This document shows positions 23,001 to 60,937 of a stretch of 64,000 bases of DNA, piece after piece. Both the position numbers and the translations under genes were made by a program. The stretch lies in the NCBI RefSeq assembly GCF_016735595.1, contig NZ_JAERRB010000008.1, positions 124,001 through 188,000 of the forward strand. The letters run 5' to 3'. The notes beneath the pieces were generated by a model, which did no database searches, was not told the origin of the DNA, and saw nothing but the letters and a program-made list of their open reading frames with translations. Position 1 is the first letter of the stretch, and every line of letters begins with the position of its first letter. This DNA is from Chryseolinea lacunae. GTDB taxonomy: Bacteria; Bacteroidota; Bacteroidia; Cytophagales; Cyclobacteriaceae.

Positions 23001-26000
23001 TCCAGTTACGTTGGTATCTGTAGACGACGCTGTCAATGTAGGTGCCGTCGCACTGTTCAAACATACCGCTGCAGGAGGCGCGATAGGTGTCGGTGCAGGT
23101 GTGAAGTCAAACGATACGCGTGAGTTTGCACCTCTTTCAAAATACTCAATAATCAAATCGTGCGTGCCTGCCGTGAGACAGGTAGTGCCTGTGTATTGTG
23201 TATAAGTATGTGCTGCAAACACTCCGGCAATGGGGTTGCCGTCGATCAACAAGCGCACACCATCGTCGCCACCCACGGTGAATGTATACACACCCGCCGC
23301 AAATGTTTTTCTCATCTTAAAGCGAACGCTATAATCGTTCAGGAACGATCCGCAGACGTTGGGACCGGCCAGCGGCACATTGTTAGACAAGTTGAGGTTG
23401 AAGGCATCGGTAGTGGTGTTATAGGTCGATGCACCCAACAGCGGCACATCGGTTTCGTCGATAAAGCCTTTATACTTCGCCGAAGCAAAATCGATGTTTG
23501 AAACGGGGGGCGACGGTGCAGCCGCGTCGGAATACACATATCCGATCCACATTTCATTGCCAAAGGTCACCTGGTCACCCGGAATCGGGGTGAAGTTGAT
23601 CACCACAACATCCGATACTGCAGGACAAGGACCGGCAGGGTTGTTTGTGGTCAGGGTAAGGGTTACGGTTCCTGATGTGATCTCCGCCGCGCTGGGCGTG
23701 TAGGTTGCGTTGAGTGTGGTTGCATTAGGGCTAAACGTTCCCGTTCCACCCGACCAGGTCGCCGATGTGGCCGAGCCACCGATAACACCCGCGAGTGTCA
23801 CAGAGCTTCCACCGCAGCCGGTTTGTGTAGGTCCTGCATCAACAAGGGCTACAGGATTGATAGTGATAGTCACGTTGTCTGTAACACCCGAGCAAGTGCC
23901 CGTAGCCGTTGCTGTGAGTATCACAGAACCTGCCGCGATGTCAGCAGTGCCAGGCGTGTAGATCGCGTTCTCGTCGGTCGCGTCGCTGAACGTGCCGTCG
24001 CCGGCTGTCGTCCAGAGCAGACCTGTTGCCGATCCGGTGAAGCTGCCCGCGAGGGTTGCTGTGCCGCCGGAGCAAAGAATCTGATCGGGGCCAGCTGCCA
24101 CGGTAGCCGCAGGGTTGATGGTGATCACTACAATGTCTGCCACGGAAGCGCAAGGCCCGCCGGTGGTCATGGTGAGTGTTACCGTTCCTGCCGCAAGATC
24201 GTTCACACCCGGTGTGTACTCTGCGTTTGTCAAGGTAGCGTCGCTAAAGGTTCCGTCGCCGGCGGTTGTCCAGGTAATTCCTGCCGCGCCGGTGAAGGCT
24301 CCTGCCAGCGTGGCTTTGTTGCCCGCGCAGATCGTTTGGTCAGGACCGGCGTTAGCGGTAGCGCCGGAACTGATGGTGATCACGATGGTATCCGTTCCTC
24401 CGTTACAAGGACCTGCAGCGTCGGGGTCGTTAGTAGTGAGTGTAAGCGTCACGCTGCCGGCTGTTGCTTCGGCTGCAGATGGCGTGTATACGGCGGTTAA
24501 TGTATTGGCGTCCGGTGCAAAGGTGCCGGCACCGCCGCTCCAGGTCGCACTGGTGGCCGAACCGCTAAATGAGCCCGCGAGGGTCACTGTGCCGCCGGCG
24601 CAAATGATCTGGTCTGCTCCCGCATTGGCAATGGCGGGGGCATTGATCGTGATAATAACATTGTCAGTCACCACCGCACAAGGTCCGGCCGAACTCAACA
24701 TGAGGGTTACCGTACCCGCCGCCACTTCGCCAACGCTCGGTGTGTAGACCGCGTTGAGCGTGTTCGCATCGGGTGCAAATGTGCCTGCCCCTCCGCTCCA
24801 TGCTGCTCCCGTAGCAGAACCTCCAAAGGCTCCGGCCAGGGTAACGCTTCCGTCACCGCAGATGGTTTGATCAGGACCGGCATTGACTGTGGCACCGGGG
24901 CTGATAGTGATGGTCACGTTGTCGGTCAACACCGTGCACGATCCAATGGTAGTCAGCGTCAGGGTCACAGAACCCGCTCCGATTTCGGCGACACTTGGTG
25001 TATAGACTGCACTAAGGTTTAGCGAGTTGGGGTTAAAGGTACCCGTTCCCCCACTCCACACACCGCCCGTTGCCGAACCTCCAACGGTGCCGGCCAGCGT
25101 GGCCGATGAACCGGAGCAGATCGTCTGGTCGGGACCAGCATTAACCGTAGGTGCAGAATTAATATTGATGATTACGTCATCTGTCGCTACCGTGCAGCCT
25201 CCTGCAGTTGTCAGCGTCAGCGTCACTGTGCCCGCAAGAAGATCGGCGGCGCTTGGTGTATAGGTTGCGTTGAGGGTGTTGGCGTTCGGTGCAAAAGTGC
25301 CCGTGCCTCCACTCCATGTACCACTTGTAGCGGAACCTCCAATAGCCCCTGCCAACGTCACGGTGCTGCCGGTACAGATCGTTTGATCAGGACCTGCATT
25401 CGCAGTGGCCGGTGGTGTGATGGTGATCACCACGTTGTCCGTCACTACGGCGCAACCGCCGGTTGAGGTCAACGTCAGGGTCACGGTGCCTGCTGTTACT
25501 TCGGCCACGCTCGGAGTGTAGATGGCTGATAAGGTAGTGGCGTTAGGATTGAATGTTCCCGTTCCTCCACTCCACACCGCGCCGGTCGAAGAACCTCCAA
25601 TGGTTCCGGCAAGCGTAACGGTCGAACCGCCGCAGATCGTCTGGTCAGTGCCCGCATTTACTGTGGCCGGTGTGGTGATGGTGATCACCACGTTGTCGGT
25701 AAGTGTTGCGCAAGGACCCGTTGTGGTCAAGGTCAGTGTCACCGTGCCTGCTGTTACTTCGGCAGTGCTCGGTGTGTAGACGGCTCCTAGCGTGTTCGCA
25801 TTGGGTGCGAATGTTCCGGTGCCGCCGCTCCAGGTGCCCCCGGTGGCAGAACCACTCACAGAACCTGCGAGCGTCACCGTGCTTCCGGCACAAATGGTTT
25901 GGTCAGGACCGGCATTGACGGTTGCCGCAGGATTGATGGTGATCGTCACGTTGTCGGTGGCGACGGCGCAAGGACCCGACGTGGTCAAAGTCAGTGTCAC

Positions 26001-29000
26001 GGTTCCGGCAGTCACTTCTGCAACGCTCGGTGTATACGTGGCTCCTAAAGTAGTATTGTTTGGTGCAAAGGTGCCGGTGCCGCCGCTCCAGGTCGCCCCG
26101 GTTGCTGCTCCACCGATGGTGCCCGCAAGGGTCACGGTGCTGCCGCCACAAATGGTTTGGTCGGGACCAGCATTCACGGTTGCCGCAGGGCTGATAGTAA
26201 TCACTACGTTATCCGTTTGCACGGCGCAGGGACCTGCGGTAGTAAGCGTCAATGTCACTGTGCCTGCCGTTACTTCGGCTGCACTTGGTGCATACGTTGC
26301 TGCCAGTGTGGTATTGCTCGGTGCAAAAGTGCCCGTGCCGCCGCTCCAGGTGCCGGTAGCAGCCGAACCACCAATGGCTCCGGCCAGCGTAACTGTGCTG
26401 CCTGCGCAAATGGTTTGATCGGGACCAGCGTTTACTGTAGCTGCCGGGGTAATAGTAAAAGTCACATTGTCTGTCACAGCAGCGCAAGAGCCTGTCGTGG
26501 TCAACGTCAGTGTAACTGTGCCCGCGGTAACTTCCGCGGCACTGGGTGTATAGGTTGCTCCTAAGGTTGTGGCATTCGGTGCGAATGTGCCCGTGCCGCC
26601 GCTCCAGGTTCCGCCAGTGGCCGAACCGCCAACTGTGCCCGCGAGGGTCGCGTTGGTGCCTGCGCAGATCGATTGATCCGGGCCGGCGTTCACCGTGGCC
26701 ACAGGGCTGATGGTGATAACTACGTTATCGGTCACTACGGCACAAGGGCCTGTTGTTGTCAACGTCAGCGTAACCGTGCCCGCCGTTACTTCGGCTGCGC
26801 TCGGGGTGTAGACCGCTGATAAGGTTGTTGCATTAGGATTGAACGTGCCTGTGCCGCCGCTCCAAACCGCGCCGGTCGAAGAACCTCCAATGGTTCCGGC
26901 AAGCGTAACGGTGTTACCCGAACAGATGGTTTGATCGGGACCTGCATTGACAGTGGCCGGTGCGTTGATGGTGATGGTTACATTATCGGTGAGTGCTGCG
27001 CAAGGACCTGTGGTGCTCAGCGTCAGCGTCACGGTACCGGCTGTTAATTCTGCCGGGCTTGGTGTATACGTTCCGTTCAAGGCATTGGCATTCGGTGTGA
27101 ATGTGCCGGAGCCTCCGCTCCACACACCGCCGGTTGCCGAACCGCCCACAGTACCTGCCAGTGTCACGGTGCTGCCCGCGCAAATAGTCTGGTCGGGTCC
27201 AGCGTTGACAGTGGCAGCAGGGTTGATGGTGATGGTTACGTTATCAGTTTGCACAGCACAAGGGCCGGTCGTTGTTAACGTGAGGGTTACTGTACCCGCT
27301 GTTACTTCGGCCGCGCTTGGCGTGTAGACTGCACTTAAGGTTGTAGCGTTCGGGGCAAAGCTTCCGGTTCCACCACTCCAGGTTCCCCCGGTGGCAGAGC
27401 CTCCCACTGTACCCGCAAGGGTCACCGTGTTGCCGCCGCATATGGTCTGATCGGGACCGGCGTTCACCGTGGCCACAGGGCTGATGGTGATGGTCACGTT
27501 ATCCGTCCGCACTGCGCAAGGACCCGTGGTGGTCAAGGTCAGCGTAACGGTTCCGGCCGTAACTTCGGCTGCACTTGGCGTATAGACAGCCCCTAAAGTA
27601 GTAGCATTCGGGTTGAACGTACCCGCTCCCCCACTCCATACTCCACCCGTAGCCGACCCGCCAATAACACCGGCAAGGGTAACTGTGCTTCCCGAGCAGA
27701 TGGTTTGATCAGGACCTGCATTGACAGTGGCTGCCGGCGTGATGGTGATTGTTACATTATCCGTTTGCACGGCACAAGGGCCAACCGTTGTCAACGTGAG
27801 GGTTACTGTACCCGCCGTTACTTCGGCCGCACTGGGTGTGTAGACTGCATTTAAGGTTGTGGCATTCGGGGCAAAGCTTCCGGTTCCGCCACTCCAGGTT
27901 CCACTGGTGGCAGAGCCTCCCACAGCACCCGCAAGGGTCGCGGTGTTGCCCGCACATATCGTCTGATCCGGACCGGCATTGACTGTAGCCACGGGTCTGA
28001 TGGTGATGACAACATTGTCCGTAGCAACCGCACAAGGACCGGTGGTGGTCAGCGTCAGCGTAACGGTTCCAGCCGTAACTTCTGCAGCACTTGGTGTGTA
28101 GATAGCATTTAAAGTAGTCGCGTTCGGATTGAACGTGCCCGCTCCTCCACTCCATACTCCACCCGTAGCCGACCCGCCAATAACGCCGGCCAATGTAACC
28201 GTGCTGCCCGAACAGATATTCTGATCCGCTCCGGCATTGACAGTAGCTGCTGGTGTGATGGTGATGACGACGTTGTCCGTCAGCGCGGCGCAAGGGCCTG
28301 TGGTTGTTAATGTAAGGGTTACGGTGCCCGCTGTTCTTTCAGCTGCACTTGGAGTGTACACCGCATTTAATGTTGTGGCGTTCGGCGCAAATGTTCCGGT
28401 GCCGCCGCTCCAGGTGCCGCCGGTGGCAGAACCACCCACTGCGCCTGCAAGGGTCGCGGTGTTGCCGGCACAAATGGTTTGATCAGGACCGGCATTAACG
28501 GTAGCCGCAGGGTTGATGGTGATCGTTACGTTGTCGGTCTGCACGGCGCAGGGGCCAACCGTTGTCAAGGTCAGCGTCACCGTGCCAGCGGTTCTTTCCG
28601 CCGCACTCGGTGTGTACACAGCGTTTAAGGTATTGGCGTTCGGTGCAAATGTTCCGGTGCCGCCGCTCCAGGTGCCGCCCGTGGCGGAACCACCTACTGC
28701 TCCCGCAAGTGTCGCAGTGTTGCCTGCGCAAATGGTTTGATCAGGACCTGCATTGACAGTCGCCACAGGTCTGATAGTGATTCTAACATTATCGTTCACG
28801 GTGGCACAAGGCCCCGTGGTGGTCAGTGTCAGCACAACAAAGCCGGCCGTTACTTCGGCTCCGCTCGGTGTGTAGATCGCTGTTAAGGTTGTTGCGTTGG
28901 GGTTGAACGTTCCTGTGCCGCCACTCCAGACACCGCCTGTGGCCGAGCCACCAACGGTGCCCGCAAGGGTCACGGTGCTTCCCGAACAAATGCTCTGGTC

Positions 29001-31262
29001 AGGTCCGGCATTCACCGTGGCTGCCGGCGTGATGGTGATCACCACGTTATCGGTCTGCACCGCGCAAGGGCCAGCCGTGGTCAATGTCAACGTCACGGTG
29101 CCTGCTGTAATTTCGGCTGCGCTGGGAATATACGTTGCTGTTAGTGTGTTTGCATTCGGACTGAACGTGCCTGTGCCGCCACTCCAGGTGCCTCCGGTGG
29201 CCGAGCCGCCAACAGTGCCGGCAAGGGTCGCCGAGTTGCCCGCGCAGATCGTTTGATCCGGCCCTGCATTGACCGTGGCTACCGGTGTGATGGTGATGGT
29301 CATGGCATCGGTCACAAACGAACAAAGCCCCGGAGGGTCGTTGGTTGTTAAGGTGAGCGTTACCGTGCCTGCTGTGATTTCTGCTGCACTGGGTGTGTAG
29401 ACTGCATTGAGTGTTGTGGCGTTGGGACTAAATGTGCCCGTGCCGCCGCTCCAGGTTGCCGAGGTGGCCGCGCCGCCAATCACGCCCGCAAGCGTCACGG
29501 TGGTGCCGGCACACACGGTCCGGTTCACACCGGCGTCTACAGTCGCGAACGGATCCAGGGTAATCACCACGTTGTCCGTTGCCGAAGGGCAAGGGCCGTT
29601 CGGATCGTTGGTCGTCAACGTAAGGGTTACTGTTCCGGCTGTTCTTTCTGCTGCGCTTGGTGTGTATACTGCATTTAAGGTCGTGGCATTGGGGGCAAAG
29701 GTTCCGGTGCCGCCACTCCAGGTGGCGCTGGTGGCAGAGCCCCCGATCAAGCCGGCCAAAGTAGCCGTGCTGGTACCGCAGATGGTTTGGGCCGGGCCGG
29801 CGTCAACTGTAGCCGCCTGGTTAAAGGTGAGGGTCACGACGTCGGTGGCGGGCAAACAAGGACCTGCCGGGTCGTCGGTAGAGATGGTGAGTATAACTGA
29901 ACCGTTGATCAGGTCATTGGGTCCGGGGGTGAACACCGCCGAAGGATTGGTGATGTTGCTAAAGGTTCCGTCGGATGTGCCGGGTTTGCTCCAGGAAATG
30001 CCGGTGGCCGAGCCACCGAATGTGCCCGCGAGGGTAACAGTGCTTCCGGCACAAATGGTCTGATTAGGACCGGCGTCTACCGTTGCCGTGGCGTTGATCG
30101 TGATGGTCACGTTGTCGCTCACTGCAGGGCAAGGGCCAAGAGGATCGTTTGTGGTTAGAACTAATACTACCGTTCCGGCTGCGATATCGTTGGGGCCGGG
30201 GGTGTAGGTTGCGTTTACAGAGGTGGCGTTCACAAAGGCTCCGTCGCCGGTAGGTGCTGTCCAGGTAACGCTGGTGGCTGCGCCTCCAAATGTGCCGGCA
30301 AGCGTGGCGGTTCCTCCATTACATATCGTCTGCGGCGGTCCGGCATCTACTGATGCGGGCGTGCTGCGGGTAATGGTTACGTTAGACGATGTTCCCGTGC
30401 AAGTAATAGGCGGAGCATCGGTGATGCGCCACTCAAATACGTTAGCCCCCATGCTGAGGCCTCCCACGGTGGTGTTTTGGGCATTGGCGTTCGCGAAAAC
30501 ACCGGTACCGGAAATAACGGTCCAGGTTCCGATTTCTCCCGTGCCCGGCGCATTACCGGCCAGTGTGGTGTTGTCGGCACAAACCGTTTGGTCTGCTCCG
30601 GCATTGGCTTGGGTCACAACGGGAACGGTAGCGTTCAGCACGAACGTACAAAGTTTGCTGTCGGTGACAGTTACGCTATAGGGCCCCGCGTCGATGCCGG
30701 AGCGGTCTTGCGACACGGCACCGTCTGACCATAAATACGTATAGGGGGCAGTGCCCCCGGCAGGTTGAATGTCGATAGTACCGTTACCGGATCCCACAGA
30801 AGGATCGCAGTCGGGGTCTATATTATTAATGGTGGCCGAAAGGGCGTTGGTCGGTTCGGTGACGGTGAGAAAGGCTGTTTTTCGTTCGCAGACGAAAGAC
30901 CCCCCGCCACTGGCGATAACGCTCACTCTATATTGACTCAGACCATTGTTGGCCGGGATACCGAACACTTCGGCGCCGGGCTCGGTCAACGTTCCATTGC
31001 CTACTCTGAAGACTACATTTTTGGAAGCCGTGTTGGCAATACGTCCCAGGAGGGTTAACCCGCCATCATCATAGTAAAGCTCGTAGGTGTAGTTCGCAAC
31101 GCCGGTGTTGACGGTGACGGAAATCTGACCATCGTTTCCTCCAAAGCAATTCACACTTTGTGAGGAAGTGCTGATTGTCAAACACTGGCCGTATACCTCC
31201 GCCGAAAGGAACGTGAGACAGACAGCGAACGCCAAAAAGAATTTGTGGTAAACTTTCAGCAT
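20025..31262 (-). CDS. Giant repetitive cell-surface protein with T9SS type B sorting domain
   Basis: A single uninterrupted 3,745-residue frame. Order: signal peptide (1-26, VYGQ); SprB-like repeats to about residue 215; about 27 Ig-like repeats (about 219-2560); a PA14-like lectin or adhesion domain (about 2560-2720, GGDDGVRLLIDGNPIAGV); three related repeats with TxTNTTVCPGGGTVNL-type openings; several further beta domains; and a gliding-motility CHU_C domain at the end (FVPNIFTPNDDGLNDSFEVL ... GWVEVLRGAKP). The last is the type B signal for export by the type IX system. Inferred role: long adhesin or gliding-related surface filament. It follows a small secreted-protein gene by 6 nt, so the two form an operon. 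Confidence 0.93.
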   Translation of the reverse strand: MLKVYHKFFLAFAVCLTFLSAEVYGQCLTISTSSQSVNCFGGNDGQISVTVNTGVANYTYELYYDDGGLTLLGRIANTASKNVVFRVGNGTLTEPGAEVFGIPANNGLSQYRVSVIASGGGSFVCERKTAFLTVTEPTNALSATINNIDPDCDPSVGSGNGTIDIQPAGGTAPYTYLWSDGAVSQDRSGIDAGPYSVTVTDSKLCTFVLNATVPVVTQANAGADQTVCADNTTLAGNAPGTGEIGTWTVISGTGVFANANAQNTTVGGLSMGANVFEWRITDAPPITCTGTSSNVTITRSTPASVDAGPPQTICNGGTATLAGTFGGAATSVTWTAPTGDGAFVNATSVNATYTPGPNDIAAGTVVLVLTTNDPLGPCPAVSDNVTITINATATVDAGPNQTICAGSTVTLAGTFGGSATGISWSKPGTSDGTFSNITNPSAVFTPGPNDLINGSVILTISTDDPAGPCLPATDVVTLTFNQAATVDAGPAQTICGTSTATLAGLIGGSATSATWSGGTGTFAPNATTLNAVYTPSAAERTAGTVTLTLTTNDPNGPCPSATDNVVITLDPFATVDAGVNRTVCAGTTVTLAGVIGGAATSATWSGGTGTFSPNATTLNAVYTPSAAEITAGTVTLTLTTNDPPGLCSFVTDAMTITITPVATVNAGPDQTICAGNSATLAGTVGGSATGGTWSGGTGTFSPNANTLTATYIPSAAEITAGTVTLTLTTAGPCAVQTDNVVITITPAATVNAGPDQSICSGSTVTLAGTVGGSATGGVWSGGTGTFNPNATTLTAIYTPSGAEVTAGFVVLTLTTTGPCATVNDNVRITIRPVATVNAGPDQTICAGNTATLAGAVGGSATGGTWSGGTGTFAPNANTLNAVYTPSAAERTAGTVTLTLTTVGPCAVQTDNVTITINPAATVNAGPDQTICAGNTATLAGAVGGSATGGTWSGGTGTFAPNATTLNAVYTPSAAERTAGTVTLTLTTTGPCAALTDNVVITITPAATVNAGADQNICSGSTVTLAGVIGGSATGGVWSGGAGTFNPNATTLNAIYTPSAAEVTAGTVTLTLTTTGPCAVATDNVVITIRPVATVNAGPDQTICAGNTATLAGAVGGSATSGTWSGGTGSFAPNATTLNAVYTPSAAEVTAGTVTLTLTTVGPCAVQTDNVTITITPAATVNAGPDQTICSGSTVTLAGVIGGSATGGVWSGGAGTFNPNATTLGAVYTPSAAEVTAGTVTLTLTTTGPCAVRTDNVTITISPVATVNAGPDQTICGGNTVTLAGTVGGSATGGTWSGGTGSFAPNATTLSAVYTPSAAEVTAGTVTLTLTTTGPCAVQTDNVTITINPAATVNAGPDQTICAGSTVTLAGTVGGSATGGVWSGGSGTFTPNANALNGTYTPSPAELTAGTVTLTLSTTGPCAALTDNVTITINAPATVNAGPDQTICSGNTVTLAGTIGGSSTGAVWSGGTGTFNPNATTLSAVYTPSAAEVTAGTVTLTLTTTGPCAVVTDNVVITISPVATVNAGPDQSICAGTNATLAGTVGGSATGGTWSGGTGTFAPNATTLGATYTPSAAEVTAGTVTLTLTTTGSCAAVTDNVTFTITPAATVNAGPDQTICAGSTVTLAGAIGGSAATGTWSGGTGTFAPSNTTLAATYAPSAAEVTAGTVTLTLTTAGPCAVQTDNVVITISPAATVNAGPDQTICGGSTVTLAGTIGGAATGATWSGGTGTFAPNNTTLGATYTPSVAEVTAGTVTLTLTTSGPCAVATDNVTITINPAATVNAGPDQTICAGSTVTLAGSVSGSATGGTWSGGTGTFAPNANTLGAVYTPSTAEVTAGTVTLTLTTTGPCATLTDNVVITITTPATVNAGTDQTICGGSTVTLAGTIGGSSTGAVWSGGTGTFNPNATTLSAIYTPSVAEVTAGTVTLTLTSTGGCAVVTDNVVITITPPATANAGPDQTICTGSTVTLAGAIGGSATSGTWSGGTGTFAPNANTLNATYTPSAADLLAGTVTLTLTTAGGCTVATDDVIININSAPTVNAGPDQTICSGSSATLAGTVGGSATGGVWSGGTGTFNPNSLNLSAVYTPSVAEIGAGSVTLTLTTIGSCTVLTDNVTITISPGATVNAGPDQTICGDGSVTLAGAFGGSATGAAWSGGAGTFAPDANTLNAVYTPSVGEVAAGTVTLMLSSAGPCAVVTDNVIITINAPAIANAGADQIICAGGTVTLAGSFSGSATSATWSGGAGTFAPDANTLTAVYTPSAAEATAGSVTLTLTTNDPDAAGPCNGGTDTIVITISSGATANAGPDQTICAGNKATLAGAFTGAAGITWTTAGDGTFSDATLTNAEYTPGVNDLAAGTVTLTMTTGGPCASVADIVVITINPAATVAAGPDQILCSGGTATLAGSFTGSATGLLWTTAGDGTFSDATDENAIYTPGTADIAAGSVILTATATGTCSGVTDNVTITINPVALVDAGPTQTGCGGSSVTLAGVIGGSATSATWSGGTGTFSPNATTLNATYTPSAAEITSGTVTLTLTTNNPAGPCPAVSDVVVINFTPIPGDQVTFGNEMWIGYVYSDAAAPSPPVSNIDFASAKYKGFIDETDVPLLGASTYNTTTDAFNLNLSNNVPLAGPNVCGSFLNDYSVRFKMRKTFAAGVYTFTVGGDDGVRLLIDGNPIAGVFAAHTYTQYTGTTCLTAGTHDLIIEYFERGANSRVSFDFTPAPTPIAPPAAVCLNSATAPTLTASSTDTNVTGFNWYSDAALTNNVGTGATFTPVLGNGAGQLDVTVVGNTSYFVTPIYPCGEGLSTTVVVSVVNGATLTITNSSVCESGGIVDLRTFVTASPAGGTFTFSGHSAITGNNFDPSGVTGAISISIGYTVGSCAATSGTLTLNVINNSTITVPTTPITVCQSGGVIDLNTLVSAVPGGGDFVFTGSTGITGDNFDPSAVTGTQTILVNYTIGGGCAAAQQQFTIDVVPAATITTTNTTVCPGGGTVNLALLVSGTPTGGTFTFSGTGVTGNIFNPAAFAGTTVTVNVTYTPAGCSPVSKTLQVIVRANNDAACGGGGSDCANFSSIQPTIITPPSCNDRDAGDVQFNIARADGTPSTFRVIWTYGSNTQTKFTSNTTNFNQLKSGLYKYTIIDEGNGKACGPVDFFLDLKTQVQIQDKQVVNNVSCFGGVDGNVVLAVDGSLTGQYWYTYVYKGVESVAQTFTPGAQLPQGLPADDTDFIILKVDDNPAFTCPDTAMVRIRNLFTKIDFAVASTSVTTCNGTDGGISVSGILGGNTATAPLQVRLRRAVPFTTDPSGYLVVADYENVVAGAKTYSDLIQGNYRVDVKDEGDCVQSKPIAVQAPGQVPLGSVNLFATDANCSNNGASGSIRVTISDPGIYKVAVSQDQVNVPDDADFVDYNSPSLPSVVFPNLSSGVYFVYLKSNNTVCPTRTDAVTINGVTALNSFEVLSSCDNVNLTLNNITGQQDKPFVIRVFSNSDKFFQIDELTQASIPISNSVSFIYTAPLTHQFLTVPGTYRFVMEQTQSTPSGSCVLVSDTVVYDVRQGVDIVLGTVKPSFPDPKRTGSIEIENIIGGTRFVSGTNELYYEVSLILPAENVVVSEYAPVKLNPQKKFSKLYEFLSPGIYRIKVRDASGCEKTQDVEISLDPSVFVPNIFTPNDDGLNDSFEVLNLPLIGSHNLIISNRWGNEVYKSSAYSKDNFWDAKNVSDGIYFYRLKVEGGETYTGWVEVLRGAKP
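23580..30608 (-). repeat. About 27 tandem 258-bp coding repeats
   Basis: In-frame repeats of about 86 residues (84-91), beginning VNAGPDQTIC and containing TVTLAG, WSGGTGTF, YTPSAAEVTAGTVTLTLTT and GPC, ending ITPAAT. Two Cys per repeat, about 60 residues apart, could form one disulfide per Ig-like domain. The middle 18 or so copies are the most uniform. An identical stretch of over 40 bases recurs exactly 1,290 bp (five units) apart, near 25581 and 26871. In units 7 to 13 two subtypes alternate, suggesting a two-repeat higher-order unit. Confidence 0.95.
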
Positions 31263-38355: not shown

Positions 38356-38838
38356 ATGGAAAATCAGATTTCTCTTGTGATGACGGAGCAGCAGTGGAAA
38401 GACGCTGAGGCGGCGGTGTTGACGTTGAAGAACTTGTTTGATGGCAAACTTATTACGCTCACAACCAAGCAGCGACAACAGTTGGCCAAGATGGGCGACG
38501 GCTCACTGCCCTTCACCGAAAAAGCGGCTGACTATGCAAAGCGCAATCCTGAATTTCTTCCCAGCTACATTAAACTGGAAGAGTTCGAGACCGACTTGCT
38601 GGCGGCACGTCAATTGAATCACATCTATCAGTTGCTGTCGCAGTTGGTAACGCAGATCGACGACAGCATGCTGGCGTCTGGAAGCGAAGCCTACCTGGCA
38701 GCGCGCACCTACTATGCGTCTGTGAAGGCGGCGGCTAAAGCCCATGTGGCGGCAGCTAAAGTGGTAGAGGCGGATCTTGCTGAGCGCTTCGCGCGCCTAG
38801 GCAAAACCGATAGTGCTAAAGCCGAACCCAAGGATTAA
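38356..38838 (+). CDS. Cytoplasmic helical protein of unknown function
   Basis: A 160-residue soluble protein, mostly helical: MTEQQWKDAEAAVLTLKNLF, an invariant-looking TTKQRQQLAKMGDGSLPFTE loop, and Ala-rich helices to the end (VKAAAKAHVAAAKVVEADLA). I have a recollection of similar uncharacterised Bacteroidota proteins with the KMGDxS loop but can attach no function. Preceded by a strong ribosome-binding site and followed by a strong terminator, so it is probably well expressed. Confidence 0.75.
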   Translation: MENQISLVMTEQQWKDAEAAVLTLKNLFDGKLITLTTKQRQQLAKMGDGSLPFTEKAADYAKRNPEFLPSYIKLEEFETDLLAARQLNHIYQLLSQLVTQIDDSMLASGSEAYLAARTYYASVKAAAKAHVAAAKVVEADLAERFARLGKTDSAKAEPKD

Positions 38839-41175: not shown

Positions 41176-41752
41176 GATCCGACGTCGGTGTTCCGAACTC
41201 CGTGTGTCAGGTTCTGAACAGCAATTTTGTCAGTAGTCGTAGTTAAAAGATGCAATGGCGGATATAAAAGATGCGTCGTTGCATCTTTAACATGCGACGT
41301 CGGATCTTTTAGATGCGATGACGCATCTTTTGACTTCGGATTTTGCCCTATTTTTTGGTGCGCTTCCGGAAAAAGATGTAGGGATTGACGTAAACCATGG
41401 AACAACGAATCTTTTAACCGCAACGGTGCATAAAAAACTCTCATTTTCCCCGAAAAACCTGACAACGTTGGATATAAAAGATGCAACGATGCATCTTTTA
41501 TATCCAACGTCGGATCTTTTAGATGCGACGACGCATCTTTTATATCCGATCACGCATCTTTGAACTCCGACGTCGATACTTAGAAATGCAGTGTCGCATC
41601 TTTTTACTTCACCGTTCCCATTCTGAATGGCAACCGCGGATTGTAAAGATCGACCGTCCGATAAAAAAGATGCTCGCGCGGGTTTTCGAGATGCACAGTT
41701 GCCTTTCGGAGATCTGGCGTTATCCCCTTTCGCCATTGCCAACGCCCTGGCT
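41176..41752. repeat. Tandem array of 21-bp palindromic units
   Basis: Most of the gene-free interval 40922-41962 is a tandem array with a strict 21-bp register. From 41249 to about 41752 the register holds for 24 units without a slip; two more units (41176 and 41197) lie before a 10-nt phase shift. A unit is a 16-bp imperfect palindrome, best form GATGCGACGACGCATC, plus a 5-bp A/T linker, TTTTA or TAAAA. The best copies start at 41270, 41291, 41312, 41480, 41501, 41522 and 41543; those at 41333-41438 and after 41606 are decayed. Because 21 is a multiple of three, several frames stay open on both strands, with seven-residue periodicity. The flanks 40922-41175 and 41753-41962 show nothing further. 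Confidence 0.85.
41465..41510. repeat. Perfect 21-bp inverted repeat inside the array
   Basis: Bases 41465-41485 pair without mismatch with 41490-41510 around the loop ACGA. It is formed by one palindromic unit plus half of each neighbour. Either strand's RNA would fold into a long hairpin. Confidence 0.85.
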
Positions 41753-41962: not shown

Positions 41963-42646
41963 ATGACCATAAAACTAAGCGACGAAGAGCGCATTCGCAT
42001 CCTAAACTCCGACGACCTGTTTGAGATTATGCGGAAAGTTTTGTTGCGCGAAGAAAAGATAGACCAGGACCGCGAACATTTCTGGGTCATCGGGCTGTCG
42101 AACAGCAACAACATTTTGTTTGTGGAACTGATCAGCATGGGCACCGTGAATTCAACGCTGGTGGAACCCATGGAGGTTTATAGTGTGGCGTTGCAGAAGC
42201 GGGCGGTCAAGGTCATGCTGGTGCACAACCATCCCAGCGGCAACCTGGAGCCCAGCGAAAACGACAAGATTCTTACCGACCGGCTCATCCAGGTGGGCCT
42301 CATCATCCACGTGCCCGTGCTGGACCACCTCATCATCTCGCCCATCGACTACGTCAGTTTTAGCGACATTGGACTACTGGCCGAACTTCAAAAAAGTCTC
42401 CGCTTTGTGCCGCGCTATAAGCAAATTGAACAGCTGAAAAAACTTGCCGAAGAGGCGGGAAGATTAGAAGGAAAAATAGAGGGGTTGAAGCAAGGGCTGG
42501 TGAAAGGAAAAGAAGAGGGAATAAAAGAAGGCAGTGTTGCCAGAAGCATCCAAATCGCCAGATTGTTGAAGGAGAAAAATATGTCTGACGAAGAGATTGC
42601 TGAGATTACGGGATTGCCGTTGGAGGAAGTGAAAAAATTAGGCTAG
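41963..42646 (+). CDS. JAB/RadC-domain protein with Rpn-like charged tail
   Basis: A 227-residue protein. Residues 20-135 are a RadC-type JAB domain with the metal site in VHNHPSGNLEPSEND (HxH, Ser, Asp) and the conserved LDHLIISPIDYVSFSD segment. The N-terminal helix-hairpin-helix of normal RadC is missing. Residues 155-227 (GRLEGKIEGLKQGLVKGKEE and MSDEEIAEITGLPLEEVKKL) match the coiled tail that ends Rpn/PD-(D/E)XK recombination-promoting nucleases and related transposase-like proteins. This fusion is unusual. Metal site intact, so peptidase or nuclease-like activity is possible; role unknown. It lies beside the 21-bp array. Confidence 0.8.
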   Translation: MTIKLSDEERIRILNSDDLFEIMRKVLLREEKIDQDREHFWVIGLSNSNNILFVELISMGTVNSTLVEPMEVYSVALQKRAVKVMLVHNHPSGNLEPSENDKILTDRLIQVGLIIHVPVLDHLIISPIDYVSFSDIGLLAELQKSLRFVPRYKQIEQLKKLAEEAGRLEGKIEGLKQGLVKGKEEGIKEGSVARSIQIARLLKEKNMSDEEIAEITGLPLEEVKKLG

Positions 42647-52192: not shown

Positions 52193-52579
52193 TTACTTCA
52201 CGTGTTTGTTCACGATTTTAGCAAGCTCGAACATCGAGATTTGCTCTTTGCCGCCGAACACAACTTTCAGCTTTGCATCGCCATTGATCATTCTTCTGTT
52301 CTTCTTATCCTGAAGATTGTTCTTCTTGATATAGTCCCAGATTTTCTTGATGATCTCTGTTCTGGGGATGGGCTTGCTGCCAATTACCTCTGCCAATGAT
52401 GCGCTGGGAGTGAGCGGTGCCATGAAGGCAGCATTAGGTTTTCTTTTGGCTTTCTTGGGAGCTGCTTTCTTAGGAGCGGCTTTCTTTGCTGCTTTTTTAG
52501 GAGCTGCTTTCTTTGCGGCCTTCTTAGGGGCTGCTTTCTTGGCGGCTTTCTTAGCCGTTTTCTTCGCTGTTTTTGCCAT
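52193..52579 (-). CDS. SWIB-domain protein with histone-H1-like tail
   Basis: A 128-residue protein. Residues 1-48 are a highly basic Lys/Ala/Pro tail (MAKTAKKTAKKAAKKAAPKK and repeats). Residues 52-128 are a SWIB/MDM2 domain (LAEVIGSKPIPRTEIIKKIW and the NLQDKKNRRMINGDAKLKVV stretch), a fold found in chromatin remodellers and in chlamydial and other bacterial proteins. The combination suggests DNA compaction or binding, inference only. The N-terminal codons and leader match the 25-residue peptide at 882. Four copies of a TTTTCATAGG motif flank this gene. Confidence 0.88.
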   Translation of the reverse strand: MAKTAKKTAKKAAKKAAPKKAAKKAAPKKAAKKAAPKKAAPKKAKRKPNAAFMAPLTPSASLAEVIGSKPIPRTEIIKKIWDYIKKNNLQDKKNRRMINGDAKLKVVFGGKEQISMFELAKIVNKHVK

Positions 52580-60490: not shown

Positions 60491-60937
60491 ATGGCAAAAA
60501 AAGCTAAGAAATCATCAAAGAAGGTTGCAAAGAAAGCAGCGAAGAAGGCTGCCAAAAAGGTAGCCAAGAAGGCCGCTAAGAAATCACCGTCAAAGAAAAC
60601 TGCAAAGAAGGCAGTGAAGAAAGCCGTTAAGGCAGCAAAGAAAGCTCCGAAAAAGGCCGCTAAAAAAGCAGCGAAGTCGGCCAAGAAAGCCGCGAAGCCC
60701 GCCGCAAAATCCATCGTAAAAACGGTCGCCAAAAAAGCTAAAGCCATCAAAAAGAAGGTGGTTAAAAAAGCTCAGGACTTCACCAAAGCAGCAGCCGAAA
60801 AAGCTGTTGAAGTGAAAGACGCCGTAGTAGACACAGCAGCTTCCGTAGCCGAAACCGTCAGCGAAAAAGTGGCGGACGCTAAAGAAGCGATCGAGAACAA
60901 AGCAAGCGACGTTCAGAAGAACCTCTTCGGAGCGTAG
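60491..60937 (+). CDS. Histone-H1-like Lys/Ala-rich protein
   Basis: A 148-residue basic protein. Residues 1-100 are almost pure Lys/Ala/Ser/Val (MAKKAKKSSKKVAKKAAKKA and repeats), like the C-terminal domain of histone H1 and bacterial Hc1-type proteins. Residues 100-148 form an amphipathic helical segment (DAVVDTAASVAETVSEKVAD) ending KNLFGA. It likely binds DNA and condenses the nucleoid, by analogy. The frame continues 24 bases upstream to 60467, but ATG 60491 matches the other basic genes (leader AATAGCT, then ATGGCAAAAA). Confidence 0.85.
   Translation: MAKKAKKSSKKVAKKAAKKAAKKVAKKAAKKSPSKKTAKKAVKKAVKAAKKAPKKAAKKAAKSAKKAAKPAAKSIVKTVAKKAKAIKKKVVKKAQDFTKAAAEKAVEVKDAVVDTAASVAETVSEKVADAKEAIENKASDVQKNLFGA

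What the first reader, a model, noticed from the sequence alone, without database searches (positions are those of the whole stretch)
41176..41752. Tandem 21-bp palindromic array in a gene-free interval
Read in steps of 21, bases 41249-41752 fall into 24 consecutive units that never lose register. Each is a 16-bp core near GATGCGACGACGCATC followed by a 5-bp linker of almost only A and T (TTTTA, TAAAA). Three facts are odd together: the unit is exactly two turns of B-DNA, so linkers all face one side and A/T tracts are in phase; the core is itself palindromic; and 21 = 7 codons, so several frames are open on both strands with seven-residue periodicity. The pattern is graded: perfect copies in two clusters (41249-41332, 41459-41605), degenerate between and beyond. 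It has no spacers, so it is not CRISPR. Possible roles: phased protein-binding array, curved DNA, a hairpin-rich RNA, or a birthplace of heptad-repeat proteins. I know of no described element with these properties, but a database search is needed.
Basis: seen in the sequence. Interest (0 to 1): 0.8.

Follow-up and report, generated by a model that had tools for sequence, protein, structure and literature searches.

The report
Small gene paired with two-turn repeats
The odd 21-base repeat array belongs to what looks like an undescribed pairing found in several bacterial phyla: a small gene of unknown function that is often followed by a short array of DNA repeats spaced two turns of the helix apart, whose spacing is kept while the letters change.

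Summary
The 21-bp periodicity is real (lag-21 identity 0.495; maximum of 1000 shuffles 0.315). It is not alone: the genome has four arrays of this unit. One lies 104 bp past a gene whose paralogue is window ORF 38356-38838. This family, here called X, has no significant Pfam, NCBIfam or PADLOC match.

Collecting X genes by protein similarity gave the decisive result. A tandem array lies within 1 kb downstream in 39 of 60 Bacteroidota X loci, upstream in 2 of 60, and downstream of 12 of 225 control genes. Downstream periods are only 21, 42-44 and 62-64 bp. X loci from array-bearing genomes, mostly Nostoc, give 27 of 29 (five were seeds) and 14 of 18.

Array letters are unrelated even beside X proteins 60-80% identical, yet the step persists. 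A terminator-like hairpin fills the gap before the array in 24 of 31. Coding heptads, CRISPR and, less firmly, RNA are disfavoured.

Best reading: a helically phased DNA site that works with X; binding is inferred. Against: 21 of 60 X loci lack it, Thiodictyon X lacks it, and the window array is 2.3 kb from its X.

The parts
38356..38838 (+). gene X, 160 aa, family without significant match in Pfam, NCBIfam, PADLOC or PHROGs
   Evidence: three copies in this genome
38876..38919 (+). terminator-like hairpin (CGGGCAG...CTGCCCG) and T run after gene X
   Evidence: read by eye from the sequence printed
41176..41248 (+). leader (GGTGTTCCGAACTCCGTGTGTCAGGTTC...) shared in kind with the arrays on C1, C3 and C5
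   Evidence: compared by eye
41249..41332 (+). first cluster of four 21-bp units, three of them strongly palindromic
41333..41458 (+). degenerate stretch exactly six units long, register kept
41459..41605 (+). second cluster of seven 21-bp units
   Evidence: (Tandem Repeats Finder, 0% indels)
41606..41752 (+). decayed tail of seven units in register

Best explanation
The array is one part of a two-part chromosomal locus. Part one is gene X (window 38356-38838), a small protein predicted to be all helical. Part two is a non-coding DNA array of units two helical turns long, often imperfect palindromes with an A/T-rich joint, roughly a dozen units, usually placed just past the X terminator. SHOWN (statistically, in the sample examined): the linkage to X, the downstream side, the two-, four- or six-turn period, the loss of sequence similarity while the step stays, and solo arrays that share units with an X-linked array of the same genome. 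INFERRED: the array acts as double-stranded DNA. Dyads at two-turn steps face one side of the helix, so a dimeric or oligomeric protein, most simply X itself, can assemble there by reading dyad spacing and DNA shape rather than a fixed word; solo arrays would be further sites, seeded by copying. My odds: linkage real 0.95; DNA-level 0.75; X or a complex containing X assembles on the array 0.4.
For: X genes gathered by protein profile have a tandem array within 1 kb downstream in 39 of 60 loci, upstream in 2 of 60, against 10 of 288 control kilobases, 12 of 225 control genes and 3 of 166 other genes in the same loci. Downstream best lags are 21 (12 loci), 42 (12), 43 (5), 44 (3), 62 (1), 63 (5), 64 (1); control lags are mixed. 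X loci of array-bearing genomes: 27 of 29 (22 of 24 without the five seed loci) and 14 of 18 downstream; 4 of 29 and 0 of 20 upstream. The sequence turns over: 13 X pairs of 60-80% identity share 3% of array 8-mers. Consensus units are significantly palindromic in 19 of 44 arrays. Where at least 40 bp part stop and array, a terminator-like hairpin lies in the gap in 24 of 31, 3.6 expected on shuffles. In nine Nostoc-type loci all spacings are multiples of 21, with 9-12 recognised units. No overall strand preference of RNA folding over 64 arrays, p=0.87. 16 of 21 array-bearing genomes not chosen for X have X, against 31 of 395 Bacteroidota.
Against: 21 of 60 X loci show no array at my threshold, among them most of the distant members. 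X on a Thiodictyon plasmid has none, nor X of the same-genus genome G001. Five of 26 array-bearing genomes have no X found, several being small metagenome genomes. In this genome only the C5 copy meets the 1-kb downstream criterion; the window copy is 2.3 kb away with four ORFs between and the third copy has its array upstream. X pairs of 82% identity have unrelated arrays, which speaks against ordinary sequence-specific binding. Dyad arms show no covariation within arrays (386 units, 31 arrays). In Nostoc-type arrays the antisense strand folds better, and in the 28 most palindromic arrays A-C mismatches outnumber G-T 215 to 82, so an RNA role there is not excluded. X has a slightly acidic mean charge, -2.3 over 42 members, and no fold match. 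Binding was not tested. The loci are related, so the Fisher p-values (4.6e-27, 1.3e-13) overstate independence.
Confidence: 0.45

Rival explanations
1. A mobile or satellite-like element: arrays grow and homogenise by slippage and by template switching in hairpins, which perfects palindromes, and are copied to new places; X is a mobility or homing partner, or a passenger, as RAYT is to REP sequences or an autonomous element to a MITE.
For: Solo arrays share units with an X-linked array of the same genome: own C3 with C5 (108 shared 10-mers), own C1-482k with the window array (62), Aquiflexum b with L356 (97). Shared leaders and borders. X is patchy: 13 of 59 relatives, 31 of 395 Bacteroidota, and its tree suggests transfer between phyla. 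A described Bacteroidota minisatellite, BrickBuilt, is MITE-borne.
Against: The step stays at 2, 4 or 6 turns while letters vanish, and array length is narrow (64 arrays, median 276 bp with padding, IQR 214-313). X has no significant match to a transposase or any other Pfam family. Aquiflexum a and c share few words with the X-linked arrays examined, so not every solo array has a visible parent.
Confidence: 0.25
2. A transcribed, hairpin-rich RNA made from the array, bound or processed with help of X.
For: Units are often palindromic (19 of 44). In ten Nostoc-type arrays (L343, L345-L348, L350, L351, L353-L355) the antisense strand folds better, with A-C exceeding G-T mismatches on the sense strand, as expected if the antisense strand were the RNA. 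One search gave a weak overall sense preference (p=0.036, 44 arrays).
Against: No overall strand preference over 64 arrays, p=0.87, and the Nostoc-type arrays are close relatives that count nearly as one. Terminator-like hairpins precede the array in 24 of 31. No Rfam match in the window.
Confidence: 0.13
3. A general chromosomal element (supercoil buffer, insulator or end-of-gene element bound by gyrase or a nucleoid protein, like BIMEs) that merely tends to sit after X.
For: Solo arrays exist away from X. The position past a terminator is typical for such elements (recalled).
Against: The array follows X specifically: 39 of 60 against 12 of 225 control genes and 3 of 166 other genes in the same loci. 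No other gene family recurs beside X beyond a leucine-rich-repeat cluster in 8 of 60 loci.
Confidence: 0.12
4. Decayed or live genes for seven-residue repeat proteins.
For: 21 bp is seven codons, and long open frames exist in several arrays.
Against: Different frames and strands are open in different arrays. X-linked arrays with periods of 22, 43 and 44 bp break the reading frame. Truly coding 21-bp repeats with the same core occur in GC-rich bacteria, for example CGACGTCGCCGCGCTCAAGAC, which I read as TDVAALK.
Confidence: 0.02

Closest known systems
BrickBuilt minisatellite/MITE of Porphyromonas gingivalis (Klein et al. 2015, PMC4596501; abstract, outline and passages seen)
   Same: Bacteroidota; intergenic tandem repeats without spacers; leader and tail; several copies per genome; unit number varies.
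   Different: Fixed 23-nt unit of one sequence, small terminal inverted repeats, described as limited in host range; the passages seen mention no linked gene. Here the period is 21 or a multiple of about two turns, the sequence differs from locus to locus, and a gene family is linked.
REP/BIME palindromes with RAYT transposases (recalled; GTAG/CGTC-tagged REP paper PMC3733652 seen only as a search listing)
   Same: Palindromic intergenic repeats; a gene-linked copy plus dispersed copies.
   Different: Not single palindromes or pairs but phased arrays of about a dozen; X has no significant match to a transposase family; no common REP word.
Iteron and partition-site arrays with their binding protein, such as Rep-iterons or ParB-parS (recalled)
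   Same: A binding protein encoded beside helically spaced, often dyad-symmetric repeats: the closest analogy for how it may work.
   Different: Those depend on a conserved recognition word; here the word is not conserved even between X proteins 82% identical. X is not matched to any Rep or Par family.
TAACTGA heptamer repeats of Beggiatoaceae, Cyanobacteria and Bacteroidetes (PMC4679880; passages seen)
   Same: Intergenic tandem repeats shared by Cyanobacteria and Bacteroidetes, with transfer suggested by its authors.
   Different: A fixed 7-bp word, in the main species mostly just upstream of start codons; not two-turn palindromes.

Membership tests
CRISPR array | conserved repeats parted by unique spacers | tested here: not met
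   21-bp units abut with no spacers
CRISPR array | cas genes nearby | tested here: inconclusive
   cas models were not run on the neighbours; no second gene family recurs beside X except a leucine-rich-repeat cluster in 8 of 60 loci
BrickBuilt-type MITE | 23-nt unit of one sequence | tested here: not met
   periods 21, 42-44, 62-64; sequences unrelated between loci
BrickBuilt-type MITE | terminal inverted repeats and target-site change | not tested
   no empty site was found to compare; G001 shares only X and a short stretch before it with the window there
REP/RAYT | Y1-type transposase gene linked to the repeats | tested here: not met
   X family has no significant Pfam or NCBIfam match
Iteron/partition system | conserved recognition word shared by related proteins | tested here: not met
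   X pairs of 60-80% identity share 3% of array 8-mers; no common word over 60 loci
Iteron/partition system | protein binds the repeats | not testable with these tools
   needs an experiment
Coding heptad-repeat gene | one open frame kept across homologous arrays | tested here: not met
   frames and strands differ; 43- and 44-bp periods
Known structured RNA (Rfam) | match to an Rfam model at the gathering score | tested here: not met
   0 matches in 64,000 bases

The most novel reading that the evidence does not exclude
A new kind of protein/DNA-site pair, present in Bacteroidota, Cyanobacteriota and Planctomycetota, in which a small protein works with DNA recognised by its geometry (dyads every two helical turns, about a dozen of them) and not by its sequence, so that the letters drift freely while the ruler is kept; further arrays elsewhere in the chromosome extend the same system.
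Probability: 0.33. Interest if true: 0.92.

Novelty: categorically new. Interest (0 to 1): 0.8.

Why it matters
If right, this names a bacterial locus, present in at least three phyla, that annotation shows as a hypothetical protein followed by empty DNA. It would be a natural case in which selection acts on the helical spacing of DNA rather than on its letters, testable directly with spacing mutants. It also gives a way of finding such arrays, through gene X, that ordinary repeat searches miss because the letters differ from locus to locus.

Tried and rejected
Simple 16-mer search: the literal unit with 3 mismatches gave scattered single hits in relatives, and outside this genome only L019 had a raised lag-21 score, with shorter lags higher still. 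The phased three-core pattern worked better but in GC-rich genomes it also finds many 21-bp repeats that look like coding coiled-coil heptads.

Within-array compensation: dyad positions showed no covariation beyond shuffles over 386 units from 31 arrays, so palindromes are not shown to be kept by paired changes. On the T-rich strand one position showed G-T far above A-C (128 to 31), but shuffles within arrays give the same, and the T-rich strand is not on a fixed side of X. A common word in X-linked arrays: none found. The border palindrome GGTACTTC[CG]GAAGTACC recurs in several Bacteroidota arrays but GGGTACTTC in only 3 of 60 X loci. A second conserved neighbour gene: none beyond a leucine-rich-repeat cluster in 8 of 60 loci. 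Fold searches gave nothing (best E 3.2 in PDB, 1.5 in BFVD); sequence profiles against PDB nothing convincing (best E 0.14 and 0.008); viral contigs no relative. Indels against substitutions to consensus (78 against 4164 in 64 arrays) is only suggestive: the alignment also scored 4 indels in the window array although its register is exact, planted one-base deletions were recovered imprecisely, and I had no neutral yardstick. The weak sense-strand folding preference (44 arrays, p=0.036) vanished with more arrays. The C1-type array unit was sought elsewhere in the own genome and found only at its own place.

Literature: eight searches showed no description of the pair in the rows listed; three lists were cut (20 of 42, 40 of 60, 15 of 48), and subscription papers are not covered.

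Rows dropped: of 64 distinct places listed were fetched; the four left out are fragments (one of G048, two of G592, one of G293). L305 (microsatellite) and L265, L300 were left out; L321 and L305 and arrays on the upstream side out of the terminator count. Of the 79 matches, 50 were examined (30, 20); sides under 200 bp were not counted (one upstream and one downstream row, two downstream rows). The first terminator count (28 of 40, 5.0 expected) could include hairpins inside the array and is replaced.

Full report
OBSERVATION. The 21-bp periodicity at 41249-41752 is real and far above shuffles: 0.495 against a mean of 0.252 and a maximum of 0.315 in 1000 dinucleotide shuffles, with further peaks at 42, 63 and 84; it is the strongest lag-21 signal in the window. 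The claim of perfect copies is too strong: 6 of 24 units have 6 or more of 8 paired core positions.

OTHER ARRAYS IN THE GENOME. The window lies in an unnamed 7.9-Mb genome. A phased core pattern finds four arrays: C28 (the window), C1 near 482.3-482.8 kb, C3 near 1.4-2.0 kb and C5 near 222.1-222.6 kb. All four carry the same kind of leader (GTGTCAG... and AAATTTGTCA or close to it), and parts of each are degenerate (compared by eye). Distances across degenerate gaps are 106 and 85 (C5), 169, 126 and 157 (C3) and 378 bp (C1), that is 10.1, 8.1, 16.1, 12.0, 14.95 and 36.0 turns at 10.5 bp (my arithmetic on positions). In the five other genomes of the genus the pattern search found no such array: hits there number 0 to 2 a strand, at or below the reversed-pattern control except in G002 (2 against 1), whose matched letters look like coding sequence.

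SAME STEP, OTHER PHYLA. Many other hits look like coding heptads in GC-rich bacteria. Some unit words are nearly the same in Nostoc mirabile (L087) and an unnamed same-family genome (L067), namely AACGTTGCACCTTTTTACTC. One Aquiflexum array has a different core but the same step and border (L069).

THE LINKED GENE. Next to arrays in Bacteroidota, Nostoc and Planctomycetaceae lies a homologue of window ORF 38356-38838. It has no significant match in Pfam, NCBIfam, PADLOC or PHROGs, no relative in viral contigs, and the window protein matches no phage or plasmid record. Two Nostoc-type members match one hypothetical protein on a Thiodictyon plasmid. The AlphaFold2 model (pLDDT 83.8, pTM 0.66, 6 sequences; two of five models much poorer) is all helical with one 55-residue helix and has no fold match. 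The own genome holds three copies. The third, 31% identical, has an array of a wholly different 21-mer, on its upstream side.

THE DECISIVE TEST. X genes were collected by protein profile and 60 of the 64 distinct places listed were fetched with flanks. A tandem array (identity >=0.55 over 84 bp, lag 12-64, microsatellites excluded) lies within 1 kb downstream in 39 of 60, upstream in 2 of 60, and in 10 of 288 control kilobases from 18 stretches of X-bearing genomes. Better matched controls: 1 kb downstream of genes in those stretches 12 of 225, and of other genes in the X loci 3 of 166. Downstream best lags: 21 (12 loci), 42 (12), 43 (5), 44 (3), 62 (1), 63 (5), 64 (1). Control lags: 12, 15, 21, 23, 27, 37, 42, 63. 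Fisher p is 4.6e-27 against control kilobases and 1.3e-13 against upstream, both without correction for relatedness. By the family codes the 39 positives fall in 12 Bacteroidota families (my count). All 8 seeds of the profile came from array-bearing loci, seven with the array directly beside, so the profile leans to that part of the family; the 21 negatives include most of the distant members, and in this genome only one of three copies meets the criterion.

CONFIRMATION ELSEWHERE. Of 26 genomes reached through array-bearing loci, 21 carry X; five of the 26 were already known to carry it, which leaves 16 of 21. Fifteen of 16 cyanobacterial genomes have 2-7 matches; Moorena has none. Downstream arrays occur in 27 of 29 measurable loci (22 of 24 without the five seeds) and in 14 of 18 of a second batch; upstream in 4 of 29 and 0 of 20. 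An X on a gammaproteobacterial plasmid has no array at my threshold. In the own genus X is in 2 of 6 genomes, and the second (G001) has no array beside it.

WHAT IS KEPT AND WHAT IS NOT. Arrays differ in sequence, GC 0.24-0.67. The 13 X pairs of 60-80% identity share 3% of array 8-mers, against 1-2.5% for more distant pairs; of 4 pairs above 80%, two share more than 20%. Kept: the step; the length (64 arrays, median 276 bp including padding, IQR 214-313); 9-12 recognised units in nine Nostoc-type loci with every spacing a multiple of 21; the position (median 80 bp after the stop, 40 arrays); and, in the 31 arrays that start at least 40 bp after the stop, a terminator-like hairpin in the gap in 24, against 3.6 on shuffles. 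Consensus units are significantly palindromic in 19 of 44, but arms do not covary within arrays.

LEVEL OF ACTION. Sense and antisense folding do not differ over 64 arrays (p=0.87), and overall G-T mismatches do not exceed A-C (342 against 464). Against this, ten related Nostoc-type arrays fold better on the antisense strand, and in the 28 most palindromic arrays A-C outnumber G-T 215 to 82, which would suit an antisense RNA there. Periods of 43 and 44 bp exclude a translated repeat as the general account. DNA geometry (two, four or six turns) is what the positives have in common.

SOLO ARRAYS. Arrays without X nearby can share units with an X-linked array of the same genome: own C3 with C5 (108 shared 10-mers), own C1-482k with the window array (62), Aquiflexum b with L356 (97); the own solo arrays share 0-1 with the third own type. 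Aquiflexum a and c share only 0-23 with each of the X-linked arrays compared. In six Nostoc genomes solo arrays sit beside the same 651-652-aa gene (87-98% identical), and in a seventh beside a shorter form of it.

MECHANISM. Shown: linkage, side, step, turnover. Inferred: X, or a complex with X, assembles on phased dyads and reads shape and spacing; solo arrays are further sites. The main rival is a mobile or satellite process in which X takes part. Because of the Nostoc strand result I hold DNA-level at 0.75 rather than higher.

HISTORY. In a 45-row tree the Planctomycetaceae X groups with termite-gut-type Bacteroidota (100/97), and the cyanobacterial rows cluster (2 changes; one origin in 66% of bootstrap trees), nested among Bacteroidota rows under midpoint rooting. 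This fits transfer between phyla, but many forks are weak and five rows have very long branches. That those Bacteroidota records are from termite guts is my recollection of the record series, not a call.

THE WINDOW'S OWN CASE. Its array is 2.3 kb from X, with four short ORFs on the other strand between. It is tied to the system by the unit and leader shared with the C5 array, which does follow X directly, not by its own distance.

LITERATURE. Eight full-text searches showed no description of the pair in the rows listed. The nearest described thing is BrickBuilt (PMC4596501; abstract, outline and passages). For PMC4907049 and PMC4679880 I saw passages only. REP/RAYT, iterons and ParB-parS are compared from memory.

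Noticed in passing
window 24857-29507: About 16-18 copies of a 258-bp repeat at 70-72% identity, probably repeated domains of a large protein; not examined.
   Followed up: no
window 52449-52573 and 60506-60690: Short 12-, 15-, 24-, 27- and 45-bp repeats that by eye would encode lysine/alanine-rich tails.
   Followed up: no
window 41963-42646: RadC-like JAB-domain gene (Pfam RadC, E 2.1e-34) directly beyond the array, with a Glu/Lys/Gly-rich C-terminal part.
   Followed up: partly
L067-L071, L103; also L304, L263: A border palindrome around GGTACTTC[CG]GAAGTACC, sometimes as a 40-bp near-perfect inverted repeat, flanks arrays in several Bacteroidota.
   Followed up: partly
L087, L128, L148, L155, L164, L183, L177: Solo arrays in seven Nostoc records sit beside the same gene (651-652 aa, 402 aa in L177; 87-98% identical to the L087 copy): an array kept at one locus across species without X in the stretch held.
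   Followed up: partly
L074, L075, L076, L077: Near-perfect 21-bp tandem arrays of other sequences in family relatives; their link to X was not tested.
   Followed up: no
L393 2992-3459: X homologue (WP_100922920.1, hypothetical protein) on a Thiodictyon plasmid between arginine decarboxylase and pyruvate kinase genes, without an array at my threshold.
   Followed up: yes
L078-L191, many GC-rich records: The same phased core recurs in what look like coding heptad repeats of Actinobacteria, haloarchaea and others, a caution for pattern searches.
   Followed up: partly
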